A stretch of 39,806 nucleotides of DNA from a virus: positions 1 to 39,806 of IMG/VR virus record IMGVR_UViG_3300025099_000053. One strand, written 5' to 3'. How positions within the stretch are numbered: the stretch's first letter is position 1; every line of letters starts with the position of its first letter. Under the pieces are notes generated by a model. That model was not told where the DNA came from. It saw only the letters and a program-made list of their open reading frames with translations, and made no database searches. Below, piece after piece: positions 1,677-39,806 of this stretch. The translations under genes and the position numbers were made by a program.

Positions 1677-1684
1677 TATTTGTG

Positions 1685-1737: not shown

Positions 1738-1743
1738 TAAATA

Positions 1744-2393: not shown

Positions 2394-2394
2394 T

Positions 2395-2784: not shown

Positions 2785-3074
2785 TGTCTTACAAGCCATT
2801 ACCCGAATACTTAACAATACAGCCCAGTAAGATACAAGGACTTGGGCTGTTTACCTTAGTTGATTTAGAAAAAGGTAAAATGCTAGGCATCACACATGTA
2901 GAAGATGTATTAACAGGTAAGCTTATACGAACACCACTTGGTGGATTTATAAATCATTTAGACGACCCTAACTTAGAACGTTATGAAGTGCAACGTTACC
3001 ATTACATACGAACTTTAAAAGATATTGCACGAGGTCAAGAGCTTACGTTAAAATACAGATTATATAATTTATGA
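2784..3074 (+). CDS. SET-domain protein, putative lysine methyltransferase
   Basis: A 96-residue minimal SET domain. Visible motifs in order: IQGLGLFTLVDLEKG near the N terminus (the GxG strand plus the first SET strands), FINHLDDPN (the NHxxxPN cofactor-binding pattern), and the C-terminal DIARGQELTLKYRL, matching the (I)xxGEELTxxY end of SET domains. SET enzymes use S-adenosylmethionine to methylate lysines. There is no Cys-rich pre-SET or post-SET region, as in small viral SET proteins. The target is unknown; it could be a host or a virion protein. It starts overlapping the stop of the previous gene and is followed by promoter cassette 3. Confidence 0.8.
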   Translation: MSYKPLPEYLTIQPSKIQGLGLFTLVDLEKGKMLGITHVEDVLTGKLIRTPLGGFINHLDDPNLERYEVQRYHYIRTLKDIARGQELTLKYRLYNL

Positions 3075-3075
3075 G

Positions 3076-3127
3076 TTGCATACATATCACAAAGTGTTAC
3101 ACTATTAGTATATAAAAAAAAGGATGG
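3076..3127 (+). promoter_or_regulatory. Promoter/operator cassette 3 with AAAGGATGG ribosome-binding site
   Basis: TTGCAT at 3076-3081, 16 bases, TGT-TACACT at 3098-3103. The spacer contains TATCAC-AAA-GTGTTA (3085-3099). AAAGGATGG at 3119-3127 precedes the ATG at 3136. This is one of the clearest copies of the recurrent cassette. Confidence 0.7.
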
Positions 3128-3135
3128 TTAAAAAA

Positions 3136-3309
3136 ATGATTAGTAAAGAACTAATTCTAAAAGCTAAAAAACAATTTTCGTTAGACGATGAAAAAAAGTT
3201 TGACGAAATGGTACTAAATGGAAAGACGCTAGAAAATGCGTTGCAAACTACAGCAAAAGATTTTTATGCTGGTTATAACATTACTAAATGGGTAAAGGAG
3301 AATCAATAA
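3136..3309 (+). CDS. 57-residue hypothetical protein
   Basis: A small, charged, helical protein of unknown function (begins MISKELILKAKK, later MVLNGKTLENALQTT). The start is ATG 3136. An in-frame ATG at 3124 is part of the AAAGGATGG ribosome-binding site itself, which in sister cassettes is never the start. Its stop overlaps the next ATG (TAATG). It is the first gene of the unit 3136-4248. Confidence 0.6.
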   Translation: MISKELILKAKKQFSLDDEKKFDEMVLNGKTLENALQTTAKDFYAGYNITKWVKENQ

Positions 3310-3818
3310 TGTCAGATTACGTAATACCAAAAGCGCCAAGAATTAGTAGGTTCGCTAAAGGCAGAACTTATACTATTGCAGGCATAAAAGAAAACATGAA
3401 AGCGCCGCAAGAATCTTATTTGCTTGCTTTAGTGGAAATGCTTAAAAAACTAGAATCTAATGCAGAAGCTTATTTTAAAGGCATGAACTGGAGTTTAAAT
3501 AATGAATTAGAGCGCGGGGTTACATTCGGCGAAAAATGGGATAAAGTTTGGGTTATGCGTAAAGGCGAGAGAGCAAGAATTATTTGTTTTATTGATGCTG
3601 ATACAGGCGAGATTTACAAACCAGCTGGTTTAAACAAACCTTATCCAAAGGTTAGAGCAAATATGTTTGAGCCAAAATCTTATGAGTTTGCAGACCCGAA
3701 CGGTGGTTGGTTATATGCAGGTTTTGATGCAGAAGCCAAAAAAAGAAGAAATTCTTTATTATTTGAAAACAAACCTAGAAGTACAAAAGAAATACTAGAA
3801 CATGGAGAAGCAAAATGA
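3309..3818 (+). CDS. Conserved phage hypothetical protein
   Basis: A 169-residue protein. The central ARIICFIDADTGEIYKPAG followed by PKVRANMF resembles a widespread conserved phage protein (a pattern of the type F-D-x-x-T-G-x-I-Y-K-P-A then RxN), whose function I do not know. ATG 3309 is preferred over the upstream in-frame ATG at 3288, because AAAGGAGAA precedes it and it couples to the previous stop. It overlaps the transglycosylase-like gene by 17 bases. Confidence 0.6.
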   Translation: MSDYVIPKAPRISRFAKGRTYTIAGIKENMKAPQESYLLALVEMLKKLESNAEAYFKGMNWSLNNELERGVTFGEKWDKVWVMRKGERARIICFIDADTGEIYKPAGLNKPYPKVRANMFEPKSYEFADPNGGWLYAGFDAEAKKRRNSLLFENKPRSTKEILEHGEAK

Positions 3819-4248
3819 GTTATCCATCATAATTGAATGTCTGATAGGGATGGCGGCTTTAACACCCGCCACTCTTTCGGACTATCAAACATGTAAATGG
3901 TATCAACAAGCTGCTGAAGTCACTGTTGAACACCACCACGCATTCGAGTTGTACTTACCCGAAAAAGAATATCTTTGGGCTATAGGTACAACTTTTTGTG
4001 AATCTAGCGGACGTACTGATGCTGTATCTGTAACAGGAGCAAGAGGTATATGGCAATACGTAAGGCGAAGTGAGAACTGGTTAGAAGAAAAACTTAATGA
4101 AGATTTTGATGTAACAAGTGCTTATGACTCAACATACATGACAAGTTGGTTATTAAGAAATGACACAAATCCAAAAAGACATTGGTACGAATCCAAACAC
4201 TGCTGGAATAAAAATATGCCCAAAAACTCTTATAAATTACACTATTAG
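3802..4248 (+). CDS. Lytic transglycosylase-like protein
   Basis: A 148-residue protein. A hydrophobic N-terminal segment (residues 8-24, IIIECLIGMAALTPATL) could be a signal peptide or anchor. The core FCESSGRTDAVSVTGARGIWQY around residues 66-87 matches the E-S-x..A-x-S-xxG-A-x-G-(I/L)-W-Q signature of goose-lysozyme/SLT transglycosylases, with the Glu as likely catalytic acid. Such enzymes cleave the MurNAc-GlcNAc bond. It is separate from the main lysis region and directly upstream of the scaffold/capsid genes, so it may act in the virion or in lysis. It starts inside the preceding gene and has no strong ribosome-binding site. Confidence 0.6.
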   Translation: MEKQNELSIIIECLIGMAALTPATLSDYQTCKWYQQAAEVTVEHHHAFELYLPEKEYLWAIGTTFCESSGRTDAVSVTGARGIWQYVRRSENWLEEKLNEDFDVTSAYDSTYMTSWLLRNDTNPKRHWYESKHCWNKNMPKNSYKLHY

Positions 4249-4269
4249 GTCTATTATATCAGTAAGCAC

Positions 4270-4312
4270 TACATCGACAGGTTCGATGTAATAAACAACT
4301 AACAGGAGTAGT
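4270..4312 (+). promoter_or_regulatory. Tandem CAGG-loop hairpins in the scaffold/capsid leader
   Basis: Hairpin 1: TACATCGA (4270-4277), loop CAGGT, TCGATGTA (4283-4290), 8 perfect base pairs and no T-run, so not a terminator. Hairpin 2: ACTA (4298-4301), loop ACAGGAG, TAGT (4309-4312). Its loop holds the ribosome-binding site of the scaffold gene. The small-terminase leader has the same layout with different stems. Confidence 0.55.
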
Positions 4313-4315
4313 GAT

Positions 4316-4984
4316 ATGTCAGAAGAAAAAGCTGAACAAGTGCAAGATAGCAATGTAGATAGCGTTGCAGATTCTGCGAAGGAAGAAGCAACAGTTACAG
4401 AGTCAGAGGAAAATGTCGTAGTCGATAATCCAACTGATGATGAACTTGATAAGCGAATACAAAGAGCTAACAAGGAAGCCGCAAAGTTTAGAGTAGAGAA
4501 GAACGAGGTCGAAGGTAAATACGATGACCTAATTCAAAATCTAGGAAAAGCTTTAGGTTTTGTTGAAGAAGATAATGCAAATAATGCAGATGCTTTAGCG
4601 GATGAAGTTCAAAAACTTCAAGACGAAAATAAAAATCTAAAGTTAATGCAAGCATTTAACAACGTTGTAACGACTGAAGGAGCAGATGACGAGCTTACTT
4701 GGTCTTACTTAATGGCGAAGGGCGAGCTGACAGAAATGGACGCTAACGACCCCGAACTAAAGGCTAAATTGTCTGAAAAGATTAAAGCAGCTATAGAAGT
4801 AAAACCAGTACTTAAATCTGACTTGCCGCCTACAGTCAAGAAGAGTGGAAGTGATATGTCTAACGAGTCACAGCCGCTTGACACTGAATCAAGAATTAGA
4901 CAACTTGAAGCAGATAAAAATTTTAAAGAAGCAAGACTACTAAAAAGTTCTAGGTTATACGAAATGACCAAAGAACAACAGTAA
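4316..4984 (+). CDS. Capsid scaffolding protein
   Basis: A 222-residue, highly acidic protein directly upstream of the major capsid gene. It has an acidic disordered N terminus (residues 1-45), a helical segment RANKEAAKFRVEKNEVEGKY typical of phage scaffolds (A..EA..FR...), a coiled-coil region around residues 90-110, and a charged C terminus. Scaffolds direct prohead assembly inside the cytoplasm and leave or are degraded before packaging. No protease is encoded next to it. Its ribosome-binding site CAGGAG lies in a small hairpin loop. Confidence 0.8.
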   Translation: MSEEKAEQVQDSNVDSVADSAKEEATVTESEENVVVDNPTDDELDKRIQRANKEAAKFRVEKNEVEGKYDDLIQNLGKALGFVEEDNANNADALADEVQKLQDENKNLKLMQAFNNVVTTEGADDELTWSYLMAKGELTEMDANDPELKAKLSEKIKAAIEVKPVLKSDLPPTVKKSGSDMSNESQPLDTESRIRQLEADKNFKEARLLKSSRLYEMTKEQQ

Positions 4985-5035: not shown

Positions 5036-5983
5036 ATGGCAGGAATTACAGGGCAAGGTCAAACATTTAACTTACCTAATTACGTAGGCGACTTATTTGA
5101 GTTGACCCCAAGTGATACACCGTTCCTTAGCTTAATTGGTGGACTTAGTGGTGGCGAAAGCACATCCAGTCCGTCATTTCAATGGCAAGCTTATGACTTG
5201 AGAGCCGCAGCTGTAGATAATGCAGCACTTGAAGGTGCAGATGCGCCTACAAGCGAATCAAGAGTTAGAGCTAACTATTACAATGTATGTCAAATCATGC
5301 AAGAGTCCATCGAGGTCTCATACAGCAAGATGGCAGCCATCGGAGCTTTTAGCGGAGAAAACATTGCTGGAGATAATCCAGTGACAAACGAAATGGATTT
5401 TCAAGTTGAGCAAATGCTTAAGCAAATTGCAAGAGACGCAGAAAAATCATTCTTAGAAGGCGCATTTAACGACCCAACAGATAACACTACTGCAAGAAAA
5501 ACAGCAGGTATTGCTAATGTTGCGGGCAACAGTGCAGACATGGGAGACGCTGCCCTTACTGAAGATAAAGTCTTAGACCTTATGCAAGCAGTATGGGAAG
5601 ACGGCGGAATCCAAGTATCGGAAACAGCAACACTTATGTGTAACGCGAATGTTAAAAGACAGCTTACAAAAATATTTGTAACTGACAAAAACTATCGTGA
5701 AGAATCACGTAACGTAGCTGGTGTAAACGTAACAACAATTGAGACTGACTTCGGTAAAGTCAACGTATTGTTAAACAGACACGTGAACACAGAACAACTT
5801 TATGTTGTATCAGCCGAGTTATGCGCGCCAGTATTTATGAACATCCCCGACAAAGGATTCTTATTTGTTGAACCACTTTCAAAAGGTGGAGCATCAGAGA
5901 AGTTCCAAATCTACGGAGAAGTTGGACTTAAATACGGTAACCCTAACGCACATGGTAAAATCGTTAATATTGCTGCTATCTAA
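5036..5983 (+). CDS. Major capsid protein (SU10/DUF5309-like)
   Basis: A 315-residue protein with the start typical of the SU10-type major capsid family: NLPNYVGDLFELTPSDTPFLSLIGG near residues 10-40, then FQWQAYDLRAA and NVCQIMQESIEVSYSK. The C-terminal part (TDFGKVNVLLNRH, EPLSKGGASEKFQIYGEVGLKYGN) matches the conserved spine and P-domain end. It forms the HK97-fold shell. AAAGGAGATAG is a strong ribosome-binding site, and a strong terminator follows the gene, as expected for the most abundant protein. Confidence 0.9.
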   Translation: MAGITGQGQTFNLPNYVGDLFELTPSDTPFLSLIGGLSGGESTSSPSFQWQAYDLRAAAVDNAALEGADAPTSESRVRANYYNVCQIMQESIEVSYSKMAAIGAFSGENIAGDNPVTNEMDFQVEQMLKQIARDAEKSFLEGAFNDPTDNTTARKTAGIANVAGNSADMGDAALTEDKVLDLMQAVWEDGGIQVSETATLMCNANVKRQLTKIFVTDKNYREESRNVAGVNVTTIETDFGKVNVLLNRHVNTEQLYVVSAELCAPVFMNIPDKGFLFVEPLSKGGASEKFQIYGEVGLKYGNPNAHGKIVNIAAI

Positions 5984-19107: not shown

Positions 19108-19316
19108 TGGATTACACTAACAAATCAACGCAGCCGCAGCCAAATGGCTTTACCACGAAAGAAATGTTAATAATGATATTAGAAGGTCAAAAAGAAATTA
19201 ATAATAGAATCGATGAACTACACGAAAAAGTAAATACAAAAATTAGCAGACAAGAGTTGAGCGGTTGGTTAGTTGCAGTATCTGCACTAATAGTCATTAT
19301 CAACTCTGTAATGTGA
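19107..19316 (+). CDS. XhlA-like membrane protein (putative holin accessory)
   Basis: A 69-residue protein: a soluble N terminus, an amphipathic coiled-coil-like helix (MLIMILEGQKEINNRIDELHEKVN, heptad-like), then one C-terminal membrane helix (WLVAVSALIVIINSVM). This architecture and size resemble haemolysin XhlA proteins, which act with holins at the cytoplasmic membrane. It lies in the lysis region and overlaps the next start. Confidence 0.55.
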   Translation: MDYTNKSTQPQPNGFTTKEMLIMILEGQKEINNRIDELHEKVNTKISRQELSGWLVAVSALIVIINSVM

Positions 19317-21154
19317 AGATATTTACAAGTTTACTAACTCTACTTTTATTCTTACCAACAACTGTTTTAGCAGAAGAAGTACCTAACGAAGTTACAGTCA
19401 ATGAAGATTTTAGTGATAGCAGTTATCAAGAAGGTTTAACTATAAACGGTGGCAATCAAGCTGCATATATTTATTCAGCAGAACAAGGTTCTTATAACAC
19501 AACAGGGTCTGCATTAGCAATAACAAGTGGTACTTATTTATTTGAATTTACAGAAGATGTTTATGAAGTAGGTTTTATAATAGGCGCAGTAAACAATGCG
19601 TACTCTGTTACTTGGAATTATGCAGACAACACAAGCGAAACTGAAAACAAATCGGGGCAAAGTACTTCTAATGGTTACGACAATATGTATGACAGCTTTT
19701 ATAAATCATTTACTGATTACAACAATGATGAAGCTAACACAGACAAATTTATAAGTTCATTCGCTGTAACGTTAACTGATATATCTTTACTAGATACTTT
19801 GTACTGGCAATATAGAGTAATTACTGTTACTACAACATCTAGTACAACAACATCTAGTACGACAACAAGTACTACGACTACAAGCACTACAACGACCACT
19901 ACTACTTTACCGCCACCGCCTATTGTTTATGAGCCACCACCACCGCCACCACCACCCGAACCAGTAACTATTATTGTAATTTTAGACAATGGAGAAGAAG
20001 CAGAGTATGAAGAATATGAAGTAGAAGATGGTACAGTTGATAGAGATAACGAAAGAAAAAAGAATTTTGAGCTGCATGGAGTGGAATTAACAGATGCACA
20101 AATTGAAAGAGGAGATTTAGAACTTTATGACATACAAAAAGAAGATTTGGAAGAAGTCAGAGAAGAGCTTTCTGATGATGATTTTATATATGATGACTTG
20201 GAAGATGACTATGTTGACGAAGAATACATTGAACTTACTGAAGAAGAGATACTTGAGCTTGAAAAACAAGTTGAAATTGAACTTAAGGAACTTGCAGAAG
20301 AATCTATTATTTTGGTGGACTCTGCGGAAATCATAGAAGATTTAAAACTTGAAGGCGAAGACCTACAAGATTTTATAGACACTATACAAGAGTTAGAAGA
20401 AATAGATTTTGAAGAAGAATTTGCAATAGAAGAAGAAGAGTTTGTACTAGAAGAAATAATATCAGAAGATATAATAGTTGTTGATGATAAAGAAATTAAA
20501 GAAAAAGATATTTTTATTGAAGCAGAAGAAGAAAGCCAAGATTTGGAGCTTGCAGATGAAGTTATATCTACTGAAGAACAAATTCAAGAAGAAATAGCTG
20601 TAGAAGTTGCCGAAGTAGAAGAAATTATACAAGATATTGTTATTGAAGAAGTAACTACTGAAGAAGTAATAGAAGTTATTGAAGAAGTAAATGACATTGG
20701 TGTACAAAACTTAGAATTTGCAACAGAAGAAGTACAAGAAATAGTACAAGCAGTTGTTGTTGAAGCTATTGAAACAGTAGAAGAACTCACAGAAGAACAG
20801 GTAGAAGTAGTAGCTGAAGTATTACAAGTAGAATCAACAGAAGATGTTAAAGTATATGCCGCAGCTGCAAAATCTGAAAAAAGCGTTGAAGTTGCAATAG
20901 AAGAATATGTAGACCGAAGTATTGCAAATGCTAATGTAGAAAACTACAACATTGCTGACGTTGTATCTGAAGTAAACGTAGAGTTGTTTTTAGCATCGCC
21001 AATAGATGCTATTATTAATGTAGATTTAAGCGGCATAGAGTTATCTAACATCGGTGCGGATATGGCAGATACTCAAAAAGAAAAAGCACAAGAAGTATTT
21101 GCGCCAGTTGTATTAACACAAATAGTAGCAATTACTAGAAGAAGGTTATTTTGA
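19313..21154 (+). CDS. Secreted, extremely acidic protein with Thr/Ser-Pro linker
   Basis: I place the start at GTG 19313, overlapping the previous stop. This gives 613 residues with a clean signal peptide (KIFTSLLTLLLFLPTTVLA, cleavage after ALA). Residues about 20-170 look like a beta-sandwich. About 170-195 is a nearly pure Thr/Ser tract, followed by proline runs (LPPPP, EPPPPPPPPEP). The remaining 400 residues are dominated by Glu, Asp, Ile and Val in an EEV/EEI cadence, ending VVLTQIVAITRRRLF. Export from the infected cell is predicted; function is unknown. Thr-Pro linkers of this type are typical of actinobacterial surface proteins. The position between lysis genes suggests a late envelope role. 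Confidence 0.7.
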   Translation: MKIFTSLLTLLLFLPTTVLAEEVPNEVTVNEDFSDSSYQEGLTINGGNQAAYIYSAEQGSYNTTGSALAITSGTYLFEFTEDVYEVGFIIGAVNNAYSVTWNYADNTSETENKSGQSTSNGYDNMYDSFYKSFTDYNNDEANTDKFISSFAVTLTDISLLDTLYWQYRVITVTTTSSTTTSSTTTSTTTTSTTTTTTTLPPPPIVYEPPPPPPPPEPVTIIVILDNGEEAEYEEYEVEDGTVDRDNERKKNFELHGVELTDAQIERGDLELYDIQKEDLEEVREELSDDDFIYDDLEDDYVDEEYIELTEEEILELEKQVEIELKELAEESIILVDSAEIIEDLKLEGEDLQDFIDTIQELEEIDFEEEFAIEEEEFVLEEIISEDIIVVDDKEIKEKDIFIEAEEESQDLELADEVISTEEQIQEEIAVEVAEVEEIIQDIVIEEVTTEEVIEVIEEVNDIGVQNLEFATEEVQEIVQAVVVEAIETVEELTEEQVEVVAEVLQVESTEDVKVYAAAAKSEKSVEVAIEEYVDRSIANANVENYNIADVVSEVNVELFLASPIDAIINVDLSGIELSNIGADMADTQKEKAQEVFAPVVLTQIVAITRRRLF

Positions 21155-24151: not shown

Positions 24152-24772
24152 TTAATTTAGTATATCAGCTTTACGTTTTAATGTATCAGCAAGTTCTATA
24201 ACGTCAGATTCGCCTAGTTTGTATAAATGGTCTTTAGCTTCGTCTAATGTTTTGACTAATACTAATTCACATTCTTCTAATGAAGTGTTAAGTAGTTGTA
24301 GTAAGTCTTTACCCTTTACAGTCTGTTGTATTGTCTGTAATGCAGCAATTGCATTATTGGTACGTTCTGTTACAACATGGGCATGAGATTTTTGAACGTC
24401 AGCTTTTGCAACAGACTGTTTAGGTTTTGAAGTAGCGTTGGGAACTACGCTAACTACATCTTCCATTTCTTCGCTAGTAACACCAGCACTAAGTAAAACG
24501 CGTAAGCAACGACCACGTGCTACAGTCTCTGCTTTTTCTAGTTTTTTATCTTTTGCTATTTTTTCTGCACCATGACCAGTACATATAGCATCAGAGTCTC
24601 CATCGTAAAAAGTTGCTTTAAATATAATTGTGCCATCTACTATGTCAACAATTTCTGTAAGAAGTTTACCGTTAGGATATTCTTTGTTCATTTGTTCAAT
24701 AAGTTCGTCTACGTTTACGTAATCATCGTAGTAACTTGGTTTATTATATTTTAAGTTTGTTCCTTGTGTCAT
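24152..24772 (-). CDS. Putative single-strand annealing/recombination protein
   Basis: The only leftward gene. The start is taken at 24772, because AGAAGGATGG (reverse strand, 24787-24778) then falls 5 bases upstream; the ATG inside GGATGG at 24781 is in frame but is part of the ribosome-binding site. The 206-residue product has an N-terminal YVNVDELIEQMNKEYP..., then IIFKATFYDGDSDAICTGHGAEK, and LEKAETVARGRCLRVLLSAG. That AET-A-GR-L block is typical of phage ERF/Rad52-like annealing proteins (often ETSAIGRALA). The C-terminal half is helical. Placement beside the initiator module supports recombination or replication; other DNA-metabolism roles are possible. Confidence 0.45.
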   Translation of the reverse strand: MTQGTNLKYNKPSYYDDYVNVDELIEQMNKEYPNGKLLTEIVDIVDGTIIFKATFYDGDSDAICTGHGAEKIAKDKKLEKAETVARGRCLRVLLSAGVTSEEMEDVVSVVPNATSKPKQSVAKADVQKSHAHVVTERTNNAIAALQTIQQTVKGKDLLQLLNTSLEECELVLVKTLDEAKDHLYKLGESDVIELADTLKRKADILN

Positions 24773-24981
24773 CTGTTCCATCCTTCTCTAATATAAGTAT
24801 TAACAATTCTGCTATCGATAACATCAATATAGAATTTGTATCTACTTTTTTTGTTTTTGTAAAAACGTCAGCTACGTTAGCTACGTTATTTTTTATATCT
24901 TTTAATTGCATAACTAAAATTGTAATACATGTAGCATTATATGCAACAACTGTTACAATAAATTTTACGGAAGGAGCGGAA
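24773..24981. promoter_or_regulatory. Divergent control region between recombination and HTH genes
   Basis: 209 bases between back-to-back starts, very AT-rich. Rightward: TGT-TACAAT (24951-24959), an extended -10, then GGAAGGAG (24969-24976) before ATG 24982. Leftward: TTTACA and TACAAA on the reverse strand (24863-24858 and 24839-24834). An imperfect inverted repeat with two AGCTACGTT units lies at 24864-24887. This is the best candidate for an early control switch. Confidence 0.55.
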
Positions 24982-25164
24982 ATGGAAAACTACTTAACAT
25001 GTCAAGACATTGCAAAGATGTTTAACGTAAAGTTAAGAACAGTATATGTATGGATTCAAAGGTCAAAAAATGGTAACCACTTTTTACCCGAACCCGATAT
25101 GCGTATAGATAATAAACCGTTATGGAAAACAAGTACCATAGCAGCAGTAAAAGAAAGAGTATAG
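24982..25164 (+). CDS. Excisionase/MerR-type HTH DNA-binding protein
   Basis: A 60-residue protein. LTCQDIAKMFNVKLRTVYVWIQR is a helix-turn-helix of the HTH_17/excisionase type, followed by a short wing with LPEPDMRIDNKPLWKTSTI, the usual continuation in these small proteins (the W..s.i segment). It binds DNA, either as a transcription regulator or as an accessory protein in replication. No integrase is present, so true excision is unlikely. GGAAGGAG precedes ATG 24982; the longer upstream frame is control region. Confidence 0.75.
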   Translation: MENYLTCQDIAKMFNVKLRTVYVWIQRSKNGNHFLPEPDMRIDNKPLWKTSTIAAVKERV

Positions 25165-25178
25165 ATAAAGGATGGTAA

Positions 25179-25466
25179 ATGGAATTATTACGAGGACAAA
25201 TAGTACCTACTAGCACAGCGTATAAAAAAGTTAGTCAAAAGGATAAGGTCGAGTGGGCTTTAAAAACTTTTAAAGAAGTTACAGGCGATGAGTTTACTTA
25301 TGACTTGAGAATCAAAAGATACGGCGCTATCATTTATGACCTAAGAGATGACGGTTGGGATATTAAAACACTCGAACCTAAGAATCAAAAAGATAAGAAG
25401 TGGGCATTTAAACTTATAAGTGAACCTTCTACAAAAGAGGATGGTCAAAGAATGTTAGCATTATGA
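25179..25466 (+). CDS. Winged-helix (HTH_39-like) DNA-binding protein
   Basis: A 95-residue protein with AAAGGATGG just before the ATG. FTYDLRIKRYGAIIYDLRDDGWDIKTLEP followed by KKWAFKLI resembles the HTH_39 winged-helix family (R..RI.dLR..Gw.I.t......g...Y.L). It is probably a regulator or a replication accessory protein acting with the initiator encoded next, whose ATG overlaps its stop region. Confidence 0.6.
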   Translation: MELLRGQIVPTSTAYKKVSQKDKVEWALKTFKEVTGDEFTYDLRIKRYGAIIYDLRDDGWDIKTLEPKNQKDKKWAFKLISEPSTKEDGQRMLAL

Positions 25467-29948: not shown

Positions 29949-30542
29949 ATGGAAACAAAAGTAACTTATGACAGACTACACCTCTTTACATTCGAGGAAC
30001 AAAATCCTAAAGACCATAACTTAGGAGAAATAGAATTTTCTATAAAACGTTTTGGATTTATAGAACTGCCCGTAGTAAATGACACTACGGGTATTTTAGT
30101 TGCAGGACACGGAAGAATATCTGCGCTGCAAGGAATGTATCAAAGACAAGAAGACTTACCAAGATACATAGACTTAGAAGAAGAGACTAATGAATGGTTA
30201 GTGCCAACACTACATGTTACTTTTGATACAGATGAAGAAGCAAAAGCTTATTTAATTGCTAGTAACTCTTTAACAATAGATGGCGGCTGGAACGAAGCAA
30301 TGCTTATGGAAATGTTATCTGAAATAGATGCTTCAACAGGTTCACTCTTAGGTACAGGTTTTGACCAACAAGCAGTAATGGATATGCTGCATGCTAATGA
30401 CAAACCAATGTTTGAAGAAGATTTTGGGCAACAGACACACAAGATAGTTGTACCAGCAACAGATATAGCGCAGGCTGAAGAAATTAAATACGCAATAGAA
30501 GAAATGGGGTGGGAATGCCAAATCAAGACGACCACCAAATAG
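29949..30542 (+). CDS. ParB-like nuclease-domain protein
   Basis: A 197-residue protein. NPKDHNLGEIEFSIKRFGFIELPVVND followed by LVAGHGRISALQGM is the ParB/Srx N-terminal domain (HN...I..SI...G....PVV....g.ivaGHgR..A). Such domains bind or hydrolyse CTP or ATP in some members. In phages the gene often lies beside the small terminase and may act in DNA packaging, modification or nicking. The C-terminal part carries a KIVVPATDIAQAEEIKYAIEEMG strand-helix unit. It precedes the packaging genes. Confidence 0.75.
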   Translation: METKVTYDRLHLFTFEEQNPKDHNLGEIEFSIKRFGFIELPVVNDTTGILVAGHGRISALQGMYQRQEDLPRYIDLEEETNEWLVPTLHVTFDTDEEAKAYLIASNSLTIDGGWNEAMLMEMLSEIDASTGSLLGTGFDQQAVMDMLHANDKPMFEEDFGQQTHKIVVPATDIAQAEEIKYAIEEMGWECQIKTTTK

Positions 30543-30889: not shown

Positions 30890-31333
30890 ATGGCAGGAAG
30901 ACCAACGAAACTTACAACAGAATTAATGAATGAGATAGCACAATATCTTCGTGCTGGAAATTACATAGAAACAACAGCTGCATTAGTAGGTATTAATCGT
31001 GACAGTATTTATGAATGGATAAAGCGCGGCAACAAAGAACAAGAGCGATTAAAACAGAATCCTAGAGCTAAAATACGTAAAAAAGAATCTCTTTTTGTTG
31101 AATTTTCCGACACAGTAAAAAAGAGTCAAGCACAGTCAGAAGCAATGTTAGTTGGATTAATAGGTCAAGCTGCACAAAAGAACTGGACAGCTGCTGCATG
31201 GCGATTAGAACGCAAGTTCCCCGATAAGTGGGGCAAAACAGAACGTAATGTTGCAACAGCGCAAGATGACCCAGTAAAAGAATTAGCTAAACAAATAGAG
31301 GACTTACGCAATGATAAATCTTCAGAAGGGTAA
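30890..31333 (+). CDS. terS: Terminase small subunit
   Basis: A 147-residue protein. RPTKLTTELMNEIAQYLRAGNYIETTAALVGINRDSIYEWIKRG is the N-terminal helix-turn-helix that recognises phage DNA. The C-terminal KNWTAAAWRLERKFPDKWGK is the conserved end of this small terminase family. It forms a ring that loads the large subunit at the packaging start site. Its only ribosome-binding site lies within hairpin 2 of the leader. It overlaps the large subunit gene by 23 bases. Confidence 0.9.
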   Translation: MAGRPTKLTTELMNEIAQYLRAGNYIETTAALVGINRDSIYEWIKRGNKEQERLKQNPRAKIRKKESLFVEFSDTVKKSQAQSEAMLVGLIGQAAQKNWTAAAWRLERKFPDKWGKTERNVATAQDDPVKELAKQIEDLRNDKSSEG

Positions 31334-32528
31334 GCAACTCGATTCTATATTAGATTCGACAGCACGTATAAATATATGGCAAGGTTCGGTATCTAGTGGC
31401 AAGACAATATCATCTCTTATCAGATGGATAGAATTTTGTCAGACTGGGGCAAAAGGTAACTTATTAATGGTAGGTAAGACCGAAAGAACGCTAAAAAGAA
31501 ACGTTATCGACGTTTTAGGCGAGTTAATGGACGGTTCGGGCAGTTTAATTACACGAACTGGCAGCGGAGAGATACAAATAGGCAACAGAACTATCTATAT
31601 CGTAGGTGCTAATGACGAAAGAGCTGAAGCAAAGATACGCGGGCTGACACTTGCTGGGGCTTATGGAGACGAAGTAACACTATGGGCTGAATCTTTTTTT
31701 AATATGCTTTTATCTCGATTACGTGTACAGAACGCACAAATGTTTTTAACAACTAACCCCGATAGTCCGAACCACTGGTTAAAAAAGAAGTTTTTAGATA
31801 GAGAAGATGAACTTGACATAAAAAACTTTGCTTTTGAATTAGACGATAATCATACACTTGACCCTAAGTATGTAGAGTCACTTAAGGCAGAGTACAGCCC
31901 AGCATCTAGTTTATGGTACAGAAGGTTTATAAACGGCGAGTGGGTTATGGCAGAAGGCGCTGTTTATGATTGCTTTGATAGATTACATAATGTTGTTAAT
32001 GAGCTGCCAAAGATGAGAGAGTACTGGGTAGGTATTGACTATGGCACAACTAATCCGTTTACCGCTATTCTCATAGGCGAAGGAGAAGACGACAAGTTAT
32101 ACGCAGTCAAAGAATACTATTATGATTCTAAAAAAGGACAAAGACAATTATCTGATGCGGAATACTCAAGAGAGCTGACAAAGTTTTTAGAGGGTTATGA
32201 CGTAAGGCGAATATTTGTTGACCCTTCTGCTGCTAGTTTTATAACGCAGCTGTGGAGAGATAATCATTTAGGTGTATCAAAAGCGAACAACAATGTACAA
32301 GATGGTATTAGAATAGTATACAACTTATTAGGAAGTCGTAAGCTGCAAGTTCATAACAGCTGTACTAACTTAATCGAAGAGATTGAGTCGTATGTTTGGG
32401 ATGTCAAGCAACAAGAAAAAGGCGAAGATAAACCTTTAAAACGTAATGACCATGCAGTAGATGCGCTAAGATATGCAATGATAAGTTTAGGCGCTATATG
32501 GCGACATTGGATTACAAGGAGTGAGTGA
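31311..32528 (+). CDS. terL: Terminase large subunit
   Basis: A 405-residue packaging motor. ATPase motifs: Walker A GSVSSGKT (residues 25-32) and Walker B region LAGAYGDEVT (about 115), with the coupling FLTTNPD further on. Nuclease domain: VGIDYGTTNPFTAILIG (about 240), FVDPSAASF (about 300) and NDHAVDALRYA (about 382), the three acidic clusters of the RNase H-like fold. The length is normal for PBSX-type terminases. It cuts concatemeric DNA and pumps it into the prohead. Confidence 0.95.
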   Translation: MINLQKGKQLDSILDSTARINIWQGSVSSGKTISSLIRWIEFCQTGAKGNLLMVGKTERTLKRNVIDVLGELMDGSGSLITRTGSGEIQIGNRTIYIVGANDERAEAKIRGLTLAGAYGDEVTLWAESFFNMLLSRLRVQNAQMFLTTNPDSPNHWLKKKFLDREDELDIKNFAFELDDNHTLDPKYVESLKAEYSPASSLWYRRFINGEWVMAEGAVYDCFDRLHNVVNELPKMREYWVGIDYGTTNPFTAILIGEGEDDKLYAVKEYYYDSKKGQRQLSDAEYSRELTKFLEGYDVRRIFVDPSAASFITQLWRDNHLGVSKANNNVQDGIRIVYNLLGSRKLQVHNSCTNLIEEIESYVWDVKQQEKGEDKPLKRNDHAVDALRYAMISLGAIWRHWITRSE

Positions 32529-34098: not shown

Positions 34099-37000
34099 AT
34101 GGCTTATGACCCAGTTAATAATGAACAGCTAGTTGAATCGCAAGCTGAAGTATTCAGAGACATCTCTGAATTTTTAACAGAGCTTACAGCCAATGAAGTA
34201 CTAGATGGCAATACAAATGCAGAATATTTATCTTCTGTAGAGTCATGGCTACAATTTAAACAAAAGTCATATCAAAAACTATTTGAAGAAGCAGCAAAAC
34301 AAGCTGACAAAGCAATTGCTGCAATACCAACATCCATAACTAATGCAGTAGAAATTGCTTACTCTATTGGAGAACAAACAGCAGCAGCAGAATTACTTGC
34401 AGCAGGTATTACGCCCGATGTGAGTGGTGGATTTCAAACATTATCACAATATGCACTAGATGGTTTAATGGATGCTGCAATAAATAGAATGGGTAATCGT
34501 GTTAACAAGCTAAATATAGTTAATGGCGTACAAGATGCCTTTAGAGAAGCTACAGAGTCCGCAGCAGCGCTAGTTTTAAGCGGTGGGGCAACATTAGAGG
34601 ATGCAACAGAAATAGCCGTTAACAGCTTATTAGACAAAGGTTTAAAGACTATAAATGTCGGCAATAGGAAGATGGGGATAGATGCTTACGCTGAAACGTC
34701 AATCAGAACTATTGCTGGTAATGCACAAGTACAAGGTTCTATAGATAGATATGAAGATGCAGACCAATATCTTAGTTTTGTAACTGACAGTCCGATGGAA
34801 TGTGATTTATGCAGACCATACGAAGGCAAAGTTATACGTACAACTAATGACTTAGAAAAGATACCACCAAAATTTCACGAAGTACCTAGTTTAGATACAG
34901 CAAAAGCTGATGGTTTATTTCATCCTAACTGCACGCATTCATTGCAGGTATATATTGACGGCTACTCCGAACCACCAACAGATACAGACGACAGTGTTAA
35001 TGGAGATAGGCGTAGTAAGATACGTAGATTACAAAAGCTAGAAAAAACTAACAGACTAAAAGAAAAAATATACAGAGAGAATGGCAGCAAGAATCGTGCA
35101 GCTGGCGCAAAAAAAAGAGCTGCAAAATATAAAGCCGAACGTAGAAGATTAGAAAACTTGCTTGAACGTAACTCATTAGGTTGGTTTACTGGAGAACAGA
35201 GACTAAGACGTTTAGCTGAATCTGTTAATATACCAGTAGAAGTACTTGACAAAGCAAAAGGTAACTTACCGCAGCTAAACAAGTTAGTTAGTCAAGCAGG
35301 TGGATTTACTGGCATAGACCCAAGACTTATTAGCCCACAAGTTAGAGCAGATGTCGCAGCTGTACTTGAACCACCAAACATAAAAGATTACGGTGTAGAT
35401 AGTTTTGATAAGTTAACAGTACAGCAGCAAAAAGATTTACGATATGCTTTTTATAAATTTTATGAAGCAGACGTTGGTGTTATGAACTACTTAGAAGATA
35501 ATGATAGTTTTCATAAACCGCCACCATTACCGAAAGAAGTAAAGAGTAAAAAACAATTTGATGACTTTGTAAGTTCAAGAAGTGGTACTAAACATTACTC
35601 TAATGATTACGGTCAATGGCAATGGGATAACAACAAAGGTAAACCAGTTATTGCATGGCAAGATGATTTAAAAGAACAATGGGCTGACACTATAGATAGA
35701 AAAATACTAGAACAAAAAGCAGCTGGCGCTAGAACAGATGGGCAACAGGTCATAGCTGGTGGTTTACCTTCATCGGGTAAAACATTTACATTAGCTAATA
35801 AAGGTAAAGTTGATTCTATAAGAACATACAACTTAGATGACTATGTCATATTAAACACTGACGACTTTAAGACAGAAATCATTATAAGAGATTATGCAAG
35901 TAAAATTGATAAAAATATAGATAAGAAAATGTCAGAGTTGTTTATCGCAGCAGATGCAACGGCAGCAGGTTCTAAATTAGAAAAAAGCCATCCATTGTAT
36001 AAACTTATAAATGCAACACACCCCGATATAGCAAAAGATATTTTAAACAAAGATTTTAGTAAAGATATTTTGACTGAAGTACGTGAAGCTATTGTAGCAA
36101 GAACACCCATTGGTAATACAGGGTTATTTGGATTTGAAGCTGCAAACATTATACACAGTGAATCATCCGCAATGCTTAAAGTAGCAACTGATGAAGTAGG
36201 TAAAGAAAGATTAAACATTATACATGACGTTACATTAGGTTCAAAAAGACCTATAGAAGCTGCAACTAAATTAATAGAAAAAAATAACTATGCAAAAGCA
36301 GATGTTATGTTTATAAACTTTACTAAAGAACAAGCAGTTGATTCTGTAGTTGACAGGTACATAAAAGGAAACTTTAACAACGTTCTTACGACAGGTAGAG
36401 GTGGTCGTTATGTTACTAAAGAGGTATTAGATGGTATGACATCTAAAATAAACAAAACTGATAGTGCAGGTAAGCAGCTGCGTGAAAAAACTTTAGATTT
36501 ACTTGGTAGAGAAGCAATGGCTGATAACGAAGGATTCTTAGTAGATTTACTAGAATCAGACATCATATCAGAAGATTTAGAAGATATACAGATAATTAAC
36601 AGGTACAGCGAAATAGACCCGTCTACTGGACAAGCAATACCGCAACGTATTGACCTTGAAATTAAAGATGGCAAGATAGTCGCTAAGAGAGCTGCTAGGG
36701 GAGCTGACGGACTAAAGGTTAAAACAAGTAAAGCAACGCAAAAGGTTGTAAGAAAAAACAATGTACCTACAGATAGGCTTGATGAAATGATAGATTATCA
36801 AACAAATGCAGATGGTTCTGTCAACCAAGCTTACCTTGCAAAAATAGAGGCAAGAAAAGCACTATTTAAAAGTCAAGGCTTAAAACCCGATGATGCACCT
36901 TTGTATATAATTGCTGAACAACAAGGCTTTACTGGTAAACCAAAAACATTACCTACAATGGCAGCTTTACAAAAAAATGGCGTTAGAAGTGATTATCAAG

Positions 37001-37959
37001 ATATAAACATTGTTAACAACAAACTAGACAATGATGTTGTTGTACTACGTGGATTATCTGACCAAGTTGACGTTACAAGCGAACGAGTCGCACAACGTAC
37101 AAAAACAGCAGCTGCTAAACGACTAGATTATATATCTAATGGATTTGCACCGAGTGACAACGTGCCGTACGTTGAAGAACGTGGACTTGTATTTTATAAA
37201 TCAGAAGATTTTGTAAAAGAATTAAAAAAACATGTAAGTGACCAAAACATCGTAGGCTTTGATTTAGAACTTATAGATGCAGATGCGCTTGATGAAGCGT
37301 TTGAACGCTTTGGCGTATTAAATGATTCTGATTACAATAAAAAATTTATAATGCCGCCGAAGGGGTACATAGAACAGTCTATGTTTAGTCATCCTATGTT
37401 TAGAGATATATATGATGATGTGCTGTTTGAATTAGAACTTGGTGTACAAGAAGTTAAACGCGCACCAATACTTAAGACTGGACTTCAAATGCACGAAGAA
37501 TTTATAAATGGAGAGTTTTATGCAGGTTTTGGGGTTTACGGACAAGGAACATATACCGATATAGATATATCTGTTGCTGTACAATATGCAAACCAATTTG
37601 GCGAATCAGAAGGCTACGGAGAAGGTGGCGTAGTACAGGCAATACTATTACCAAAAGGTATAAGAATGCCTAGTGACGAAGTATTGCAAAAAGTAGCTAA
37701 AGAAGCGCATGAAGCAAGGATGGGTTATTACGACAAATTTGAAATGAAGGGTAGATATAGCGCTAGTAATACTAAAATGTATAGAGAGGCAAATGCCCTA
37801 GTAGAAGTTGACATTGGTCGACGTTTAACTGCAATGGGTTATCAAGCATACCCCGTCAAACCTTTAGACGGTAGTAAAAATCATGTTGTTATATTAGATA
37901 GAACAGCAGTAACTGTTGCAGAAGCACCAGTTTATATAGACGGAAAGTTAAATAGTTAA
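34099..37959 (+). CDS. Minor capsid protein fused to zeta-toxin-like kinase and ADP-ribosyltransferase-like domains
   Basis: 1,286 residues, directly after the portal. Residues 1-290 match Phage_min_cap2-type minor capsid proteins: helical start, then SIRTIAGNAQVQGSIDRYED, MECDLCRPYEGKV (about 233) and GLFHPNCTHSLQVYIDGY (about 272). Residues about 540-780 resemble zeta toxins: Walker A GGLPSSGKT (about 553), NTDDFKTEI, and a late LIEKNNYAKADVMFINF strand. From about 980 an ADP-ribosyltransferase-like domain: VVVLRGLSD, GVYGQGTYTDIDISVAVQYA (about 1145), then NHVVILDRTAV (about 1261). The head domain would place the two enzymatic domains in the virion for delivery into the host. The third catalytic residue of the transferase cannot be assigned by eye. 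Confidence 0.85.
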   Translation: MAYDPVNNEQLVESQAEVFRDISEFLTELTANEVLDGNTNAEYLSSVESWLQFKQKSYQKLFEEAAKQADKAIAAIPTSITNAVEIAYSIGEQTAAAELLAAGITPDVSGGFQTLSQYALDGLMDAAINRMGNRVNKLNIVNGVQDAFREATESAAALVLSGGATLEDATEIAVNSLLDKGLKTINVGNRKMGIDAYAETSIRTIAGNAQVQGSIDRYEDADQYLSFVTDSPMECDLCRPYEGKVIRTTNDLEKIPPKFHEVPSLDTAKADGLFHPNCTHSLQVYIDGYSEPPTDTDDSVNGDRRSKIRRLQKLEKTNRLKEKIYRENGSKNRAAGAKKRAAKYKAERRRLENLLERNSLGWFTGEQRLRRLAESVNIPVEVLDKAKGNLPQLNKLVSQAGGFTGIDPRLISPQVRADVAAVLEPPNIKDYGVDSFDKLTVQQQKDLRYAFYKFYEADVGVMNYLEDNDSFHKPPPLPKEVKSKKQFDDFVSSRSGTKHYSNDYGQWQWDNNKGKPVIAWQDDLKEQWADTIDRKILEQKAAGARTDGQQVIAGGLPSSGKTFTLANKGKVDSIRTYNLDDYVILNTDDFKTEIIIRDYASKIDKNIDKKMSELFIAADATAAGSKLEKSHPLYKLINATHPDIAKDILNKDFSKDILTEVREAIVARTPIGNTGLFGFEAANIIHSESSAMLKVATDEVGKERLNIIHDVTLGSKRPIEAATKLIEKNNYAKADVMFINFTKEQAVDSVVDRYIKGNFNNVLTTGRGGRYVTKEVLDGMTSKINKTDSAGKQLREKTLDLLGREAMADNEGFLVDLLESDIISEDLEDIQIINRYSEIDPSTGQAIPQRIDLEIKDGKIVAKRAARGADGLKVKTSKATQKVVRKNNVPTDRLDEMIDYQTNADGSVNQAYLAKIEARKALFKSQGLKPDDAPLYIIAEQQGFTGKPKTLPTMAALQKNGVRSDYQDINIVNNKLDNDVVVLRGLSDQVDVTSERVAQRTKTAAAKRLDYISNGFAPSDNVPYVEERGLVFYKSEDFVKELKKHVSDQNIVGFDLELIDADALDEAFERFGVLNDSDYNKKFIMPPKGYIEQSMFSHPMFRDIYDDVLFELELGVQEVKRAPILKTGLQMHEEFINGEFYAGFGVYGQGTYTDIDISVAVQYANQFGESEGYGEGGVVQAILLPKGIRMPSDEVLQKVAKEAHEARMGYYDKFEMKGRYSASNTKMYREANALVEVDIGRRLTAMGYQAYPVKPLDGSKNHVVILDRTAVTVAEAPVYIDGKLNS

Positions 37960-38133
37960 ATGAAAGTTAGCGCAATGACTAGCAGGCGTTTGGCACGGTT
38001 AATACAAACTTTGCCACCCGATGCTATGCAAGAATACATGATTCATATATCCAATGGTGGAGATAGAGAAGTATGGCTATTGCAATACGAAATAAAACAA
38101 AGAGAAAGAATAGATAAAAAATATGAGCTTTGA
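37960..38133 (+). CDS. 57-residue hypothetical protein
   Basis: A small basic protein right after the minor capsid gene (begins MKVSAMTSRRLARLI). It has a helical N terminus, an acidic middle and a charged C-terminal helix (QYEIKQRERIDKKYEL). No family recognised. It overlaps the next gene by 11 bases in another frame. It may still belong to the late transcript. Confidence 0.5.
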   Translation: MKVSAMTSRRLARLIQTLPPDAMQEYMIHISNGGDREVWLLQYEIKQRERIDKKYEL

Positions 38134-38362
38134 AACAGCGTTAGTGTTAGAAATAGCACTAGATACTTGGGAAGATAAGAAAACAAAAGATAATTGGGAA
38201 AAAGTTTTAGCAGCTGGCACTAAACATACTTTTACAGATACAGAGACTGACGTATATGCTGATGTAAATACAACGCTTACAGATTCAGAATCTATTTATG
38301 CACGCTTACGATTACCGAAAAAAAAAGCTATAGAGTTAGTCAATCACATCAATAACTCATAG
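38123..38362 (+). CDS. 79-residue hypothetical protein
   Basis: A small acidic protein (begins MSFETALVLEIALDTWEDKK; contains YADVNTTLTDSESIYARLRLPKKKAIELVNHI). The alternation suggests a helix, two strands and a final helix. No known family. It starts inside the preceding gene and ends 12 bases before the next. Confidence 0.5.
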   Translation: MSFETALVLEIALDTWEDKKTKDNWEKVLAAGTKHTFTDTETDVYADVNTTLTDSESIYARLRLPKKKAIELVNHINNS

Positions 38363-38374
38363 TAAGATAGGACA

Positions 38375-38629
38375 ATGACAATTCAAGTAGGAGATGCAAG
38401 AGCAGACATCACAGTACTTAATGTATATGAAGAGATAGAAAGGGAAGGGCAAGCATTTTATGTTTGCAAAGTCCAGTATAAATCAACACACGCGGGCGTA
38501 GGGCATAGACGTTCTATCTTAACAAGAAACAATTTAGATGAAATTGTAGAGTGCGGCAATGTTAAGAGACTTACAGACTCTGCTGACTTTGACAGAATTA
38601 TCGATGCTTACTTAGAAATATATGGCTAA
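38375..38629 (+). CDS. 84-residue hypothetical protein
   Basis: A beta-rich small protein: MTIQVGDARADITVLNVYEEIEREGQAFYVCKVQYK reads like several consecutive strands of an SH3-like or OB-like barrel. It ends with a short helix (FDRIIDAYLEIYG). Function is unknown. AAGATAGGA precedes the ATG. Its stop overlaps the next small gene. Confidence 0.5.
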   Translation: MTIQVGDARADITVLNVYEEIEREGQAFYVCKVQYKSTHAGVGHRRSILTRNNLDEIVECGNVKRLTDSADFDRIIDAYLEIYG

Positions 38630-38756
38630 ACCAAAATGCGAATCATGCAAAAAACAATTAAAGTTCTTAAACAATAATAAATGGATGTGCGACCAATCGC
38701 CGTCTGTATGTGAAAGTTCACTAAAAATAATCTATGAAAAATTAGAGGAAGAATAA
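38622..38756 (+). CDS. 44-residue zinc-ribbon-like protein
   Basis: A short ORF with CESC near the N terminus and CDQSPSVC after a turn, a C-x2-C...C-x6-C arrangement that could coordinate one zinc ion. The C terminus is helical and acidic (IIYEKLEEE). Overlap with the previous gene and the following promoter cassette support it as the last gene of its unit. Confidence 0.55.
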   Translation: MAKPKCESCKKQLKFLNNNKWMCDQSPSVCESSLKIIYEKLEEE

Positions 38757-38757
38757 C

Positions 38758-38811
38758 TTGCATTAGTATCACAAAGTATTACACTATGTAGGTAAGACAA
38801 AATAAGGATGG
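38758..38811 (+). promoter_or_regulatory. Promoter/operator cassette with AAGGATGG ribosome-binding site
   Basis: TTGCAT (38758-38763), 16 bases, TACACT (38780-38785), with TATCAC-AAA-GTATTA at 38767-38781. ATAAGGATGG at 38802-38811 precedes ATG 38818. Nearly the same sequence as the cassette at 3076. Confidence 0.7.
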
Positions 38812-38817
38812 TAAAAA

Positions 38818-39087
38818 ATGAGTGCGCAAGGTATTTTCATTTTAGACGGAATGGACTCAAGACCTAAAAGCAAAGCCCAGCTTAAAAAGATATTAGCTGC
38901 TGGTAAATCTGAAATGTTAGCGATAGAACAAGTCAGTGCTTTTGGCGAACAGTTTCAAGGTAAGTTAACTAAAAAAGCTTTAGAAGAGTGGGGAGAAATT
39001 ACTTTTGTAGTTCCTAGCCCTTACACTGCAAGAAACAGCTTCGGTAAGTTTTACTTAAACAAACAAGGAGAAATCGCTGTCAAGTAA
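38818..39087 (+). CDS. 89-residue hypothetical protein
   Basis: A mixed alpha/beta protein of unknown function: FILDGMDSRPKSKAQLKKILAAG, then MLAIEQVSAFGEQF, and a C-terminal FVVPSPYTARNSFGKFYLNK. It follows a full promoter cassette and an AAGGATGG site, so it is a confident gene even though the family is not recognised. Confidence 0.6.
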   Translation: MSAQGIFILDGMDSRPKSKAQLKKILAAGKSEMLAIEQVSAFGEQFQGKLTKKALEEWGEITFVVPSPYTARNSFGKFYLNKQGEIAVK

Positions 39088-39121
39088 CATTGTTTACACG
39101 ACTGAAACACGGAAGGAAGGA

Positions 39122-39304
39122 GTGTGCTATTGTACGGAAGATGGCACATTTCATTCTCCGCAATATCCATACCGAAGCATTATCTGCTTATGTAATATCT
39201 GCGTAAGTTGTTATTGTATGGAAGATTCTTATATGCAGGTATATCACGTTTTAGATTATGTAGAAATAGAAAAAGGAAGGAAACCATCGTTTGACCCGAA
39301 TTAA
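39122..39304 (+). CDS. 60-residue Cys-rich hypothetical protein
   Basis: GTG 39122 behind a GGAAGGAAGGA tract. The product contains CYC near the start and CLCNICVSCYC in the middle, eight cysteines in all, plus two histidines, so it may bind one or two zinc ions or an iron-sulphur cluster. The C-terminal third (VYHVLDYVEIEKGRKPSF) lacks cysteine. No family recognised. Confidence 0.45.
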   Translation: MCYCTEDGTFHSPQYPYRSIICLCNICVSCYCMEDSYMQVYHVLDYVEIEKGRKPSFDPN

Positions 39305-39539
39305 AAAATTAATAAAACAGTATAAGCTTCAGAGGTTACTAAAAAGGCTTATACCTAAACAAGCTAGACCACCAGCATTTTATACAGATGTAATAATAGT
39401 TAATAAGGTATTGCTTAAGTATTGGTTAACTAAAAATAATTTACATGCAAAGTATCATGTTAAGTCATGGCTTAAATCTAAAAATCAAGAAAAATATAAT
39501 TCTAAAATTGACTGGTATTTAGAAGGTGCAGGTTATTAA
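39291..39539 (+). CDS. 82-residue basic hypothetical protein
   Basis: The start is TTG 39291, overlapping the Cys-rich gene by 14 bases and preceded by AAGGAAGG. Very basic and Tyr/Leu-rich (IKKLIKQYKLQRLLKRLIPKQ, KYHVKSWLKSKNQEKY). Probably helical and able to bind nucleic acid or membranes. Function is unknown. Confidence 0.45.
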   Translation: MTRIKKLIKQYKLQRLLKRLIPKQARPPAFYTDVIIVNKVLLKYWLTKNNLHAKYHVKSWLKSKNQEKYNSKIDWYLEGAGY

Positions 39540-39548
39540 ACAAATTTC

Positions 39549-39563
39549 TGATAGAATAATTTT
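39549..39563 (+). promoter_or_regulatory. Putative leaderless promoter of the DUF5675 gene
   Basis: TGA-TAGAAT (39549-39557) lies 6 bases before ATG 39564, and no Shine-Dalgarno sequence is present. Same design as at 18960, 21708 and 26770. Confidence 0.5.
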
Positions 39564-39806
39564 ATGGATTTAGAAGTATTAAGAATAAGTTCACAGGAAG
39601 ATTCTACTAACGGTATTTTATTTGATGTGACTGGCGGCAAGCGTAAGTTTTTATGCTACACCTTAGAAGACGAATATAGAGCTACAAAAGTTATGCACGA
39701 AACAAGAATACCCGAAGGCAAGTACAAATTAACTCTACGTACTGAAGGTGGATTTCATACACGTTACCTTAAGAAATATAAAGACTGGCATCGTGGCATG
39801 ATTTAT
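39564..39806 (+). CDS. DUF5675 family protein, 5' part (continues at position 2)
   Basis: The first 81 codons of the gene, open to the right edge, beginning MDLEVLRISSQEDSTNGILF. The last part repeats the left end of the window, so the complete gene is 39564-39646 joined to 1-469 (183 residues). See the entry at 2-469 for motifs. It has no Shine-Dalgarno sequence; the -10-like TGATAGAAT upstream suggests a leaderless message. Confidence 0.8.
   Translation, partial: MDLEVLRISSQEDSTNGILFDVTGGKRKFLCYTLEDEYRATKVMHETRIPEGKYKLTLRTEGGFHTRYLKKYKDWHRGMIY
39647..39806. repeat. Right copy of the 160-base terminal redundancy
   Basis: Matches 1-160 apart from G at 39773 against A at 127. Circularising at this overlap gives about 39,646 bases and restores the DUF5675 frame. 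Confidence 0.95.

What the first reader, a model, noticed from the sequence alone, without database searches (positions are those of the whole stretch)
34099..37959. Virion-borne minor capsid protein carrying both a kinase-toxin-like and an ADP-ribosyltransferase-like domain
One 1,286-residue polypeptide joins a Phage_min_cap2-type head domain (CDLC...FHPNC) to a zeta-like P-loop domain (GGLPSSGKT, NTDDFK) and a C-terminal transferase-like domain (VVLRGLSD, GVYGQGTY, HVVILDRTAV). Single toxin-type tails on MuF/minor capsid proteins are known as polyvalent proteins. Two different enzymatic modules on one chain would deliver two activities with the DNA. No antitoxin-like gene is evident next to it. 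About 240 residues between the head and kinase domains (300-540) and about 190 between kinase and transferase (780-970) remain unexplained and may hold processing sites or a further domain.
Basis: partly seen in the sequence, partly recalled or inferred. Interest (0 to 1): 0.8.

Follow-up and report, generated by a model that had tools for sequence, protein, structure and literature searches.

The report
Phage head protein with swappable effector
An environmental phage encodes a minor capsid protein that carries a zeta-toxin-type kinase plus a C-terminal domain with the ADP-ribosyltransferase fold (apparently without the usual catalytic glutamate), and related phages exchange that last domain together with part of a tiny downstream gene, much as bacteria exchange toxin cassettes.

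Summary
Window 34099-37959 encodes a 1286-aa MuF2-type (Phage_min_cap2) minor head protein directly after terminase and portal. The zeta-type kinase is firm: Pfam, 13 of 13 aligned members, and fold. The C-terminal module matches no sequence family tried, but its model (pLDDT 80) aligns best to ADP-ribosyltransferase (ART) folds, well above unrelated rows. Inferred mapping puts invariant R984 at the strand-1 catalytic position and invariant H1262 where ARTs carry Glu, so ART chemistry is unproven.

New here: the ART module is exchanged as a cassette. Kinase and ART trees conflict (AU p 7e-6 and 2e-9). DNA identity falls from about 95% to 49-70% between ~36.7 and ~38.05 kb, then recovers. The tract ends inside a conserved 57-aa ORF that starts directly after the stop codon and whose type follows the ART type. 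"No antitoxin-like gene" is therefore doubtful, although immunity is untested. Residues ~361-520 stay unexplained.

MuF-zeta fusions, MuF-ART fusions and multi-enzyme polyvalent proteins are already described, so this is a new variant of a known kind. Packaging, injection and both enzyme activities are inferred.

The parts
30890..31333 (+). small terminase subunit gene (context)
   Evidence: phrog_4102 E 7e-37
31311..32528 (+). large terminase subunit gene (context)
   Evidence: phrog_2 E 2e-50; 50% identical to Streptomyces phage TerL
32610..34097 (+). portal gene, immediately upstream
   Evidence: phrog_533 E 4e-90
34099..37959 (+). whole gene: MuF2-type minor head protein with kinase and ART-fold modules, 1286 aa
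34222..35151 (+). Phage_min_cap2 (MuF2) head domain, residues 42-351
   Evidence: Pfam E 2.8e-31; phrog_581 E 3e-40
34990..35178 (+). helical hairpin at the end of the head domain, residues 298-360
   Evidence: AlphaFold2 model, pLDDT mostly 73-91
35179..35658 (+). conserved linker of unknown fold, residues 361-520
   Evidence: conserved in 13 members but pLDDT mostly under 50; no match in phage records
35719..36714 (+). zeta-type kinase, residues 541-872
   Evidence: Zeta_toxin in 13/13 members; Z 11.6-11.9 to zeta/PezT
35758..35784 (+). Walker A GGLPSSGKT, residues 554-562
   Evidence: invariant in 13 members
36736..36768 (+). left exchange boundary, about residues 880-890, low-confidence linker
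   Evidence: identity drop; pLDDT under 50
36766..37956 (+). exchangeable ART-fold module, residues 890-1286
   Evidence: model pLDDT 80.3; fold comparison; conflicting trees
37048..37050 (+). R984, invariant, inferred strand-1 catalytic position
   Evidence: inference from range ends
37546..37560 (+). GTYTD 1150-1154, invariant, inferred second ART motif with Y1152
37882..37899 (+). HVVILD 1262-1267; H1262 at the inferred place of the ART catalytic Glu
   Evidence: inference from range ends
37960..38133 (+). 57-aa ORF directly downstream, candidate partner or immunity gene, co-exchanged over about its first 36 codons

Best explanation
A MuF2-type minor head protein acts as carrier for a conserved zeta-type kinase and an exchangeable C-terminal ART-fold effector. 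Shown here: gene order terS-terL-portal-minor head gene; the head domain; the kinase family and fold; the ART-like fold by model comparison; cassette exchange of the ART module with a tract end inside the adjacent 57-aa ORF. Inferred: the protein is built into the head, ejected with the DNA and acts early in infection. The kinase would phosphorylate a nucleotide-linked metabolite, most simply UDP-N-acetylglucosamine as zeta/PezT do. The ART-fold module would bind NAD and act on a host target that differs between hosts, which would explain its faster evolution and its exchange. The 57-aa product would keep the module harmless in the producing cell.
For: Head domain, gene order and family hits. 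Kinase in 13/13 members and zeta fold at Z 11.6-11.9. ART folds head the list (Z 4.0-6.8) with the next unrelated row at 3.1. Kinase tree and ART tree conflict with full support; reverse groupings rejected at AU p 7e-6 and 2e-9. Sharp identity block 36.7-38.05 kb. Synonymous distance L009-L015 is 1.2-1.4 in head and kinase but 0.41 in the ART module. The small ORF's type follows the ART type. Published MuF proteins with ART or zeta tails are taken to be head-packaged effectors (PMC5512222, PMC9503650, PMC5576092).
Against: No virion or activity data. ART fold rests on one model with moderate Z; Foldseek itself found nothing significant in PDB and no sequence profile matched. The inferred Glu position holds His in all members, so ordinary ADP-ribosyl transfer may be absent. 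The exchange groups were named after seeing the alignment.
Confidence: 0.55

Rival explanations
1. The ART-fold module is a NAD-consuming or NAD-binding enzyme rather than a protein ADP-ribosyltransferase, for instance a NAD glycohydrolase or phosphorylase or an RNA-directed transferase, and the kinase may also act on NAD.
For: Invariant His at the inferred Glu position. MbcT, a NAD-degrading ART-fold toxin (function from general knowledge), is among the fold matches at Z 5.0. AvrRxo1, a zeta-fold kinase that phosphorylates NAD (PMC5491322, PMC5087710), matches the kinase at Z 9.7. Some viral ARTs are proposed to degrade NAD (PMC9503650).
Against: Zeta and PezT fit the kinase better than AvrRxo1 (Z 11.6-11.9 against 9.7). 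Closest fold rows of the module also include protein-modifying ARTs.
Confidence: 0.25
2. Both modules are enzymatically dead or dispensable and now serve as structural parts of the head or of DNA ejection, as proposed for the inactive PBECR domain of phage Mu F.
For: The catalytic Glu of ARTs appears replaced. The best fold row is a phage pre-ejectosome protein. An inactive effector domain on Mu F is described (PMC5512222).
Against: Walker A, the DD motif and the H-x-ESS and GGRY blocks of the kinase are invariant. The module evolves faster than the head part and is exchanged, unlike a structural part.
Confidence: 0.15
3. The 57-aa ORF is an unrelated head-region gene, and its partial exchange merely reflects where a homologous recombination tract happened to end.
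For: All relatives share gene order, so co-occurrence in 18 contigs is not independent. The ORF has no family match. Other local identity dips occur in the region.
Against: It abuts the gene in every complete locus, from 4 bases overlap to 30 bases apart, and its type follows the ART type against the kinase tree. [quoted passage not shown]
Confidence: 0.4

Closest known systems
MuF polymorphic toxins, MuF2/PF06152 branch (PMC5576092)
   Same: MuF2 head domain, position right after portal, long C-terminal extension, small ORF directly downstream, exchangeable C-terminus
   Different: Two enzyme-type modules on one chain, with the kinase kept constant; the ART-fold module matches no known toxin profile; no integrase found
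MuF fused to zeta-type kinase and MuF fused to ART (PMC5512222, PMC9503650)
   Same: Same carrier and the same two enzyme superfamilies
   Different: Those papers report each tail separately in the passages read; here both sit on one protein, and the residue pattern of the ART-fold module is R...Y...H
Polyvalent proteins with ART-PolyVal / Tox-ART-HYD2 domains (PMC5512222)
   Same: Several enzymatic domains in one probably injected phage protein
   Different: No match to PF18760 in Pfam scans of all 14 members; strand-1 residue is Arg, not His; carrier is a MuF2 head protein
Phage T4 Alt
   Same: Head-packaged, injected ART in the published model
   Different: R-S-E active site, separate protein, no kinase; comparison from literature only
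Zeta/PezT kinases (1gvn, 3q8x, 2p5t) and AvrRxo1
   Same: P-loop kinase fold and Zeta_toxin profile
   Different: Fused to a capsid protein; about 80 extra residues between the P-loop half and the H-x-ESS half; no epsilon/PezA-type antitoxin recognised

Membership tests
MuF2 (PF06152) minor head proteins | PF06152 profile match | tested here: met
   E 2.8e-31, 109 bits against cut-off 26.3
MuF2 (PF06152) minor head proteins | gene immediately downstream of portal | tested here: met
   portal ends 34097, gene starts 34099
MuF polymorphic toxins | C-terminal extension with a toxin-type domain | tested here: met
   Zeta_toxin over cut-off; ART fold by model only
MuF polymorphic toxins | cognate immunity gene | tested here: inconclusive
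   conserved, co-exchanged 57-aa ORF; no functional test
MuF polymorphic toxins | temperate phage | tested here: inconclusive
   no tyrosine integrase or serine recombinase match; ParB-like gene leaves plasmid-like lysogeny open
Zeta toxin kinases (PF06414) | profile match and P-loop kinase fold | tested here: met
Zeta toxin kinases (PF06414) | phosphorylation of UDP-N-acetylglucosamine | not testable with these tools
   substrate unknown; AvrRxo1-like NAD use not excluded
ART superfamily | ART fold | tested here: met
   pLDDT 80.3 model; ART entries fill the top of the list at Z 4.0-6.8, next unrelated row 3.1; moderate Z, no Foldseek or sequence support
ART superfamily | canonical R-S-E or H-Y-E catalytic residues | tested here: inconclusive
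   Arg at strand 1 and invariant Tyr present, but inferred Glu position is His; mapping from range ends only
ART superfamily | NAD-dependent activity | not testable with these tools
   needs an assay
ART-PolyVal (PF18760) | profile match | tested here: not met
   no match in Pfam scan of all 14 members; the genome search was also empty but its controls were silent

The most novel reading that the evidence does not exclude
A virion-delivered two-enzyme effector in which a zeta-type kinase and an ART-fold module with unusual R...Y...H residues act on linked nucleotide substrates such as NAD, the ART module and a cognate 57-aa inhibitor being exchanged between phages as a toxin-immunity cassette, possibly in a virulent phage group.
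Probability: 0.12. Interest if true: 0.8.

Novelty: new variant of a known kind. Interest (0 to 1): 0.52.

Why it matters
If true, polymorphic-toxin logic (constant carrier, exchangeable effector, tracking small gene) operates on a phage head protein that already carries a second enzyme. It gives a sharply bounded, testable pair, the ART module plus the 57-aa ORF, and adds an ART-fold family that current sequence profiles miss and whose apparent lack of the catalytic glutamate leaves its chemistry open.

Tried and rejected
Sequence routes to ART gave nothing significant: Pfam, PHROGs, NCBIfam, PDB profile search, phage tblastn. Foldseek against PDB gave no ART at useful E. Foldseek against viral models gave five hits under E 0.001, all uncharacterised phage proteins; the SP-15 one could not be linked by sequence. 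PADLOC gave one weak match, not significant. Scans of the bacterial/archaeal genome collection with kinase and ART profiles found no relative, so no host was identified. Chance was rejected: conserved layout and dN/dS under 0.45. A further domain in residues 361-520 was neither found nor excluded, because the model is poor there. No paper on the cyanophage A4 ejectosome structure was found in the library.

Full report
What is there. It follows the small terminase, large terminase and portal genes. Residues 42-351 match Phage_min_cap2 (E 2.8e-31) and residues 681-786 match Zeta_toxin (E 6.5e-12), both over Pfam cut-offs. PMC5576092 calls PF06152 the MuF2 domain and places it in the MuF superfamily. 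The window looks like a complete, circularly permuted genome: its ends overlap by 160 bases with one mismatch, giving about 39.65 kb. TerL is 50% identical to Streptomyces phages and the capsid protein 55% to a Mycobacterium phage, so an actinobacterial host is likely (inference).

Relatives. Scans of IMG/VR found 20 contigs with the C-terminal module, one of them 100% identical to the window. Full-length copies are about 1282-1323 aa and keep head, linker, kinase and ART modules in the same order. Neither the kinase nor the ART profile found a relative in the collection of 84,980 bacterial and archaeal species.

Kinase. All 13 aligned members hit Zeta_toxin. The model of residues 296-880 is weak overall (pLDDT 62), but its kinase part aligns to zeta and PezT at Z 11.6-11.9 over 215-225 residues, and Foldseek reaches E 1.5e-3 with probability 1.0. 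A profile comparison with a zeta protein of another viral contig (L041) aligns the H-x-ESS, LN-x-I and RY...GRYV blocks (E 1.1e-11). AvrRxo1, a zeta-fold kinase that phosphorylates NAD (PMC5491322, PMC5087710), aligns at Z 9.7, so the substrate is open.

C-terminal module. No sequence library recognises residues 866-1286. The AlphaFold2 model has pLDDT 80.3 and pTM 0.66. Foldseek against PDB finds nothing significant. In the second-look alignment of the 759 chains that Foldseek ranked highest, the top 21 entries (Z 4.0-6.8) are a pre-ejectosome protein of cyanophage A4, SAIP, diphtheria- and exotoxin-type catalytic domains, MbcT, PARP12, tankyrase 2 and PARP4; the next row is unrelated at Z 3.1. 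I read this as real support for the ART fold, with the caution that Z below 8 can reflect a common arrangement, and that the ART-like nature of the cyanophage protein is itself my inference. The residue mapping is also an inference, from the printed range ends plus general knowledge of ART active sites. In row 1ddt model residue 106 pairs with 8 and 417 with 168; if ungapped, this puts R984 on the strand-1 histidine and H1262 on the catalytic glutamate. The tankyrase row agrees within one residue. R984, Y1152, H1262 and D1267 are invariant in all 14 sequences.

Exchange. Window and L009 are about 97% identical in protein over residues 1-880 but 47% beyond. L009 and L015 show the reverse: 68% before and 76% after alignment column 900. 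In DNA, window against L009 falls from about 95% to 49-70% between about 36,700 and 38,050 and then returns to 95% or more. L009 against L015 rises from 58-70% in the kinase to 73-91% across the module and drops to 59% after it. Trees of the two modules conflict with full support, and the reverse groupings are rejected at AU p 7e-6 and 2e-9; these groups were chosen after seeing the alignment. Synonymous distance between L009 and L015 is 1.2 in the head domain and 1.4 in the kinase but 0.41 in the ART module.

The small ORF. A 57-58 aa ORF starts between 4 bases before and 30 bases after the end of the stop codon in every relative examined where the region is complete. All 18 contigs that carry it also carry the ART module. 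Over its first 36 codons window and L009 are 64% identical while L009 and L015 are 94%; over the last 21 codons the values are 90% and 95%. The exchanged tract thus ends inside this ORF. [quoted passage not shown] Immunity is thus a reasonable hypothesis here. It is not shown: one recombination tract could have carried a bystander.

Mechanism. Most likely the protein is built into the head and ejected with the DNA, as proposed for MuF and polyvalent proteins (PMC5512222, PMC9503650). The kinase is the constant arm and the ART-fold module the variable arm. Shown: architecture, kinase family, fold resemblance, exchange. Inferred: packaging, injection, chemistry, targets and the role of the 57-aa protein.

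Novelty. MuF-zeta fusions, MuF-ART fusions and multi-enzyme polyvalent proteins are all described. In the papers searched, a limited library, I did not find this combination, the exchange with its tracking ORF, or this ART sequence family. I file it as a new variant of a known kind.

Lifestyle. No tyrosine integrase or serine recombinase family was found in the window, and no tyrosine integrase in four related records, three of which encode the kinase. Published MuF toxins are almost confined to temperate phages (PMC5576092). This may be a virulent group that uses the protein for takeover, but plasmid-like lysogeny is not excluded: a ParB-like gene lies at 29949-30542.

Noticed in passing
1-160 and 39647-39806: The window's ends overlap by 160 bases with one mismatch, so the record, classed as linear, looks like a complete circularly permuted genome of about 39.65 kb.
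   Followed up: yes
37960-39806 and 1-4984: Across the junction, about 6.7 kb of mostly small genes of unknown function separate the minor head gene from the major capsid gene at 5036-5983; usually these lie close together.
   Followed up: partly
35430-35690: A second local divergence: in residues ~450-520 L003 and L004 differ from the window while L005 and L009 do not, a possible smaller exchange in the linker.
   Followed up: no
19265-21154: A 629-aa ORF with TTG start has no convincing family match.
   Followed up: no
24152-25466: The only sizeable minus-strand gene found (24152-24781) is divergent from two HTH genes (24736-25164, 25179-25466), a possible regulatory switch in a genome without a recognised integrase.
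   Followed up: no
L041 5221-7107: A 629-aa protein of an unrelated viral contig joins an Mrr_N-like stretch to a strong Zeta_toxin domain (E 8e-29).
   Followed up: no
PDB 9k3a_B residues 1267-1606 against window residues ~928-1283: A cyanophage A4 pre-ejectosome protein is the best fold match of the C-terminal module, hinting that ART-like folds may be more common in ejected phage proteins.
   Followed up: partly
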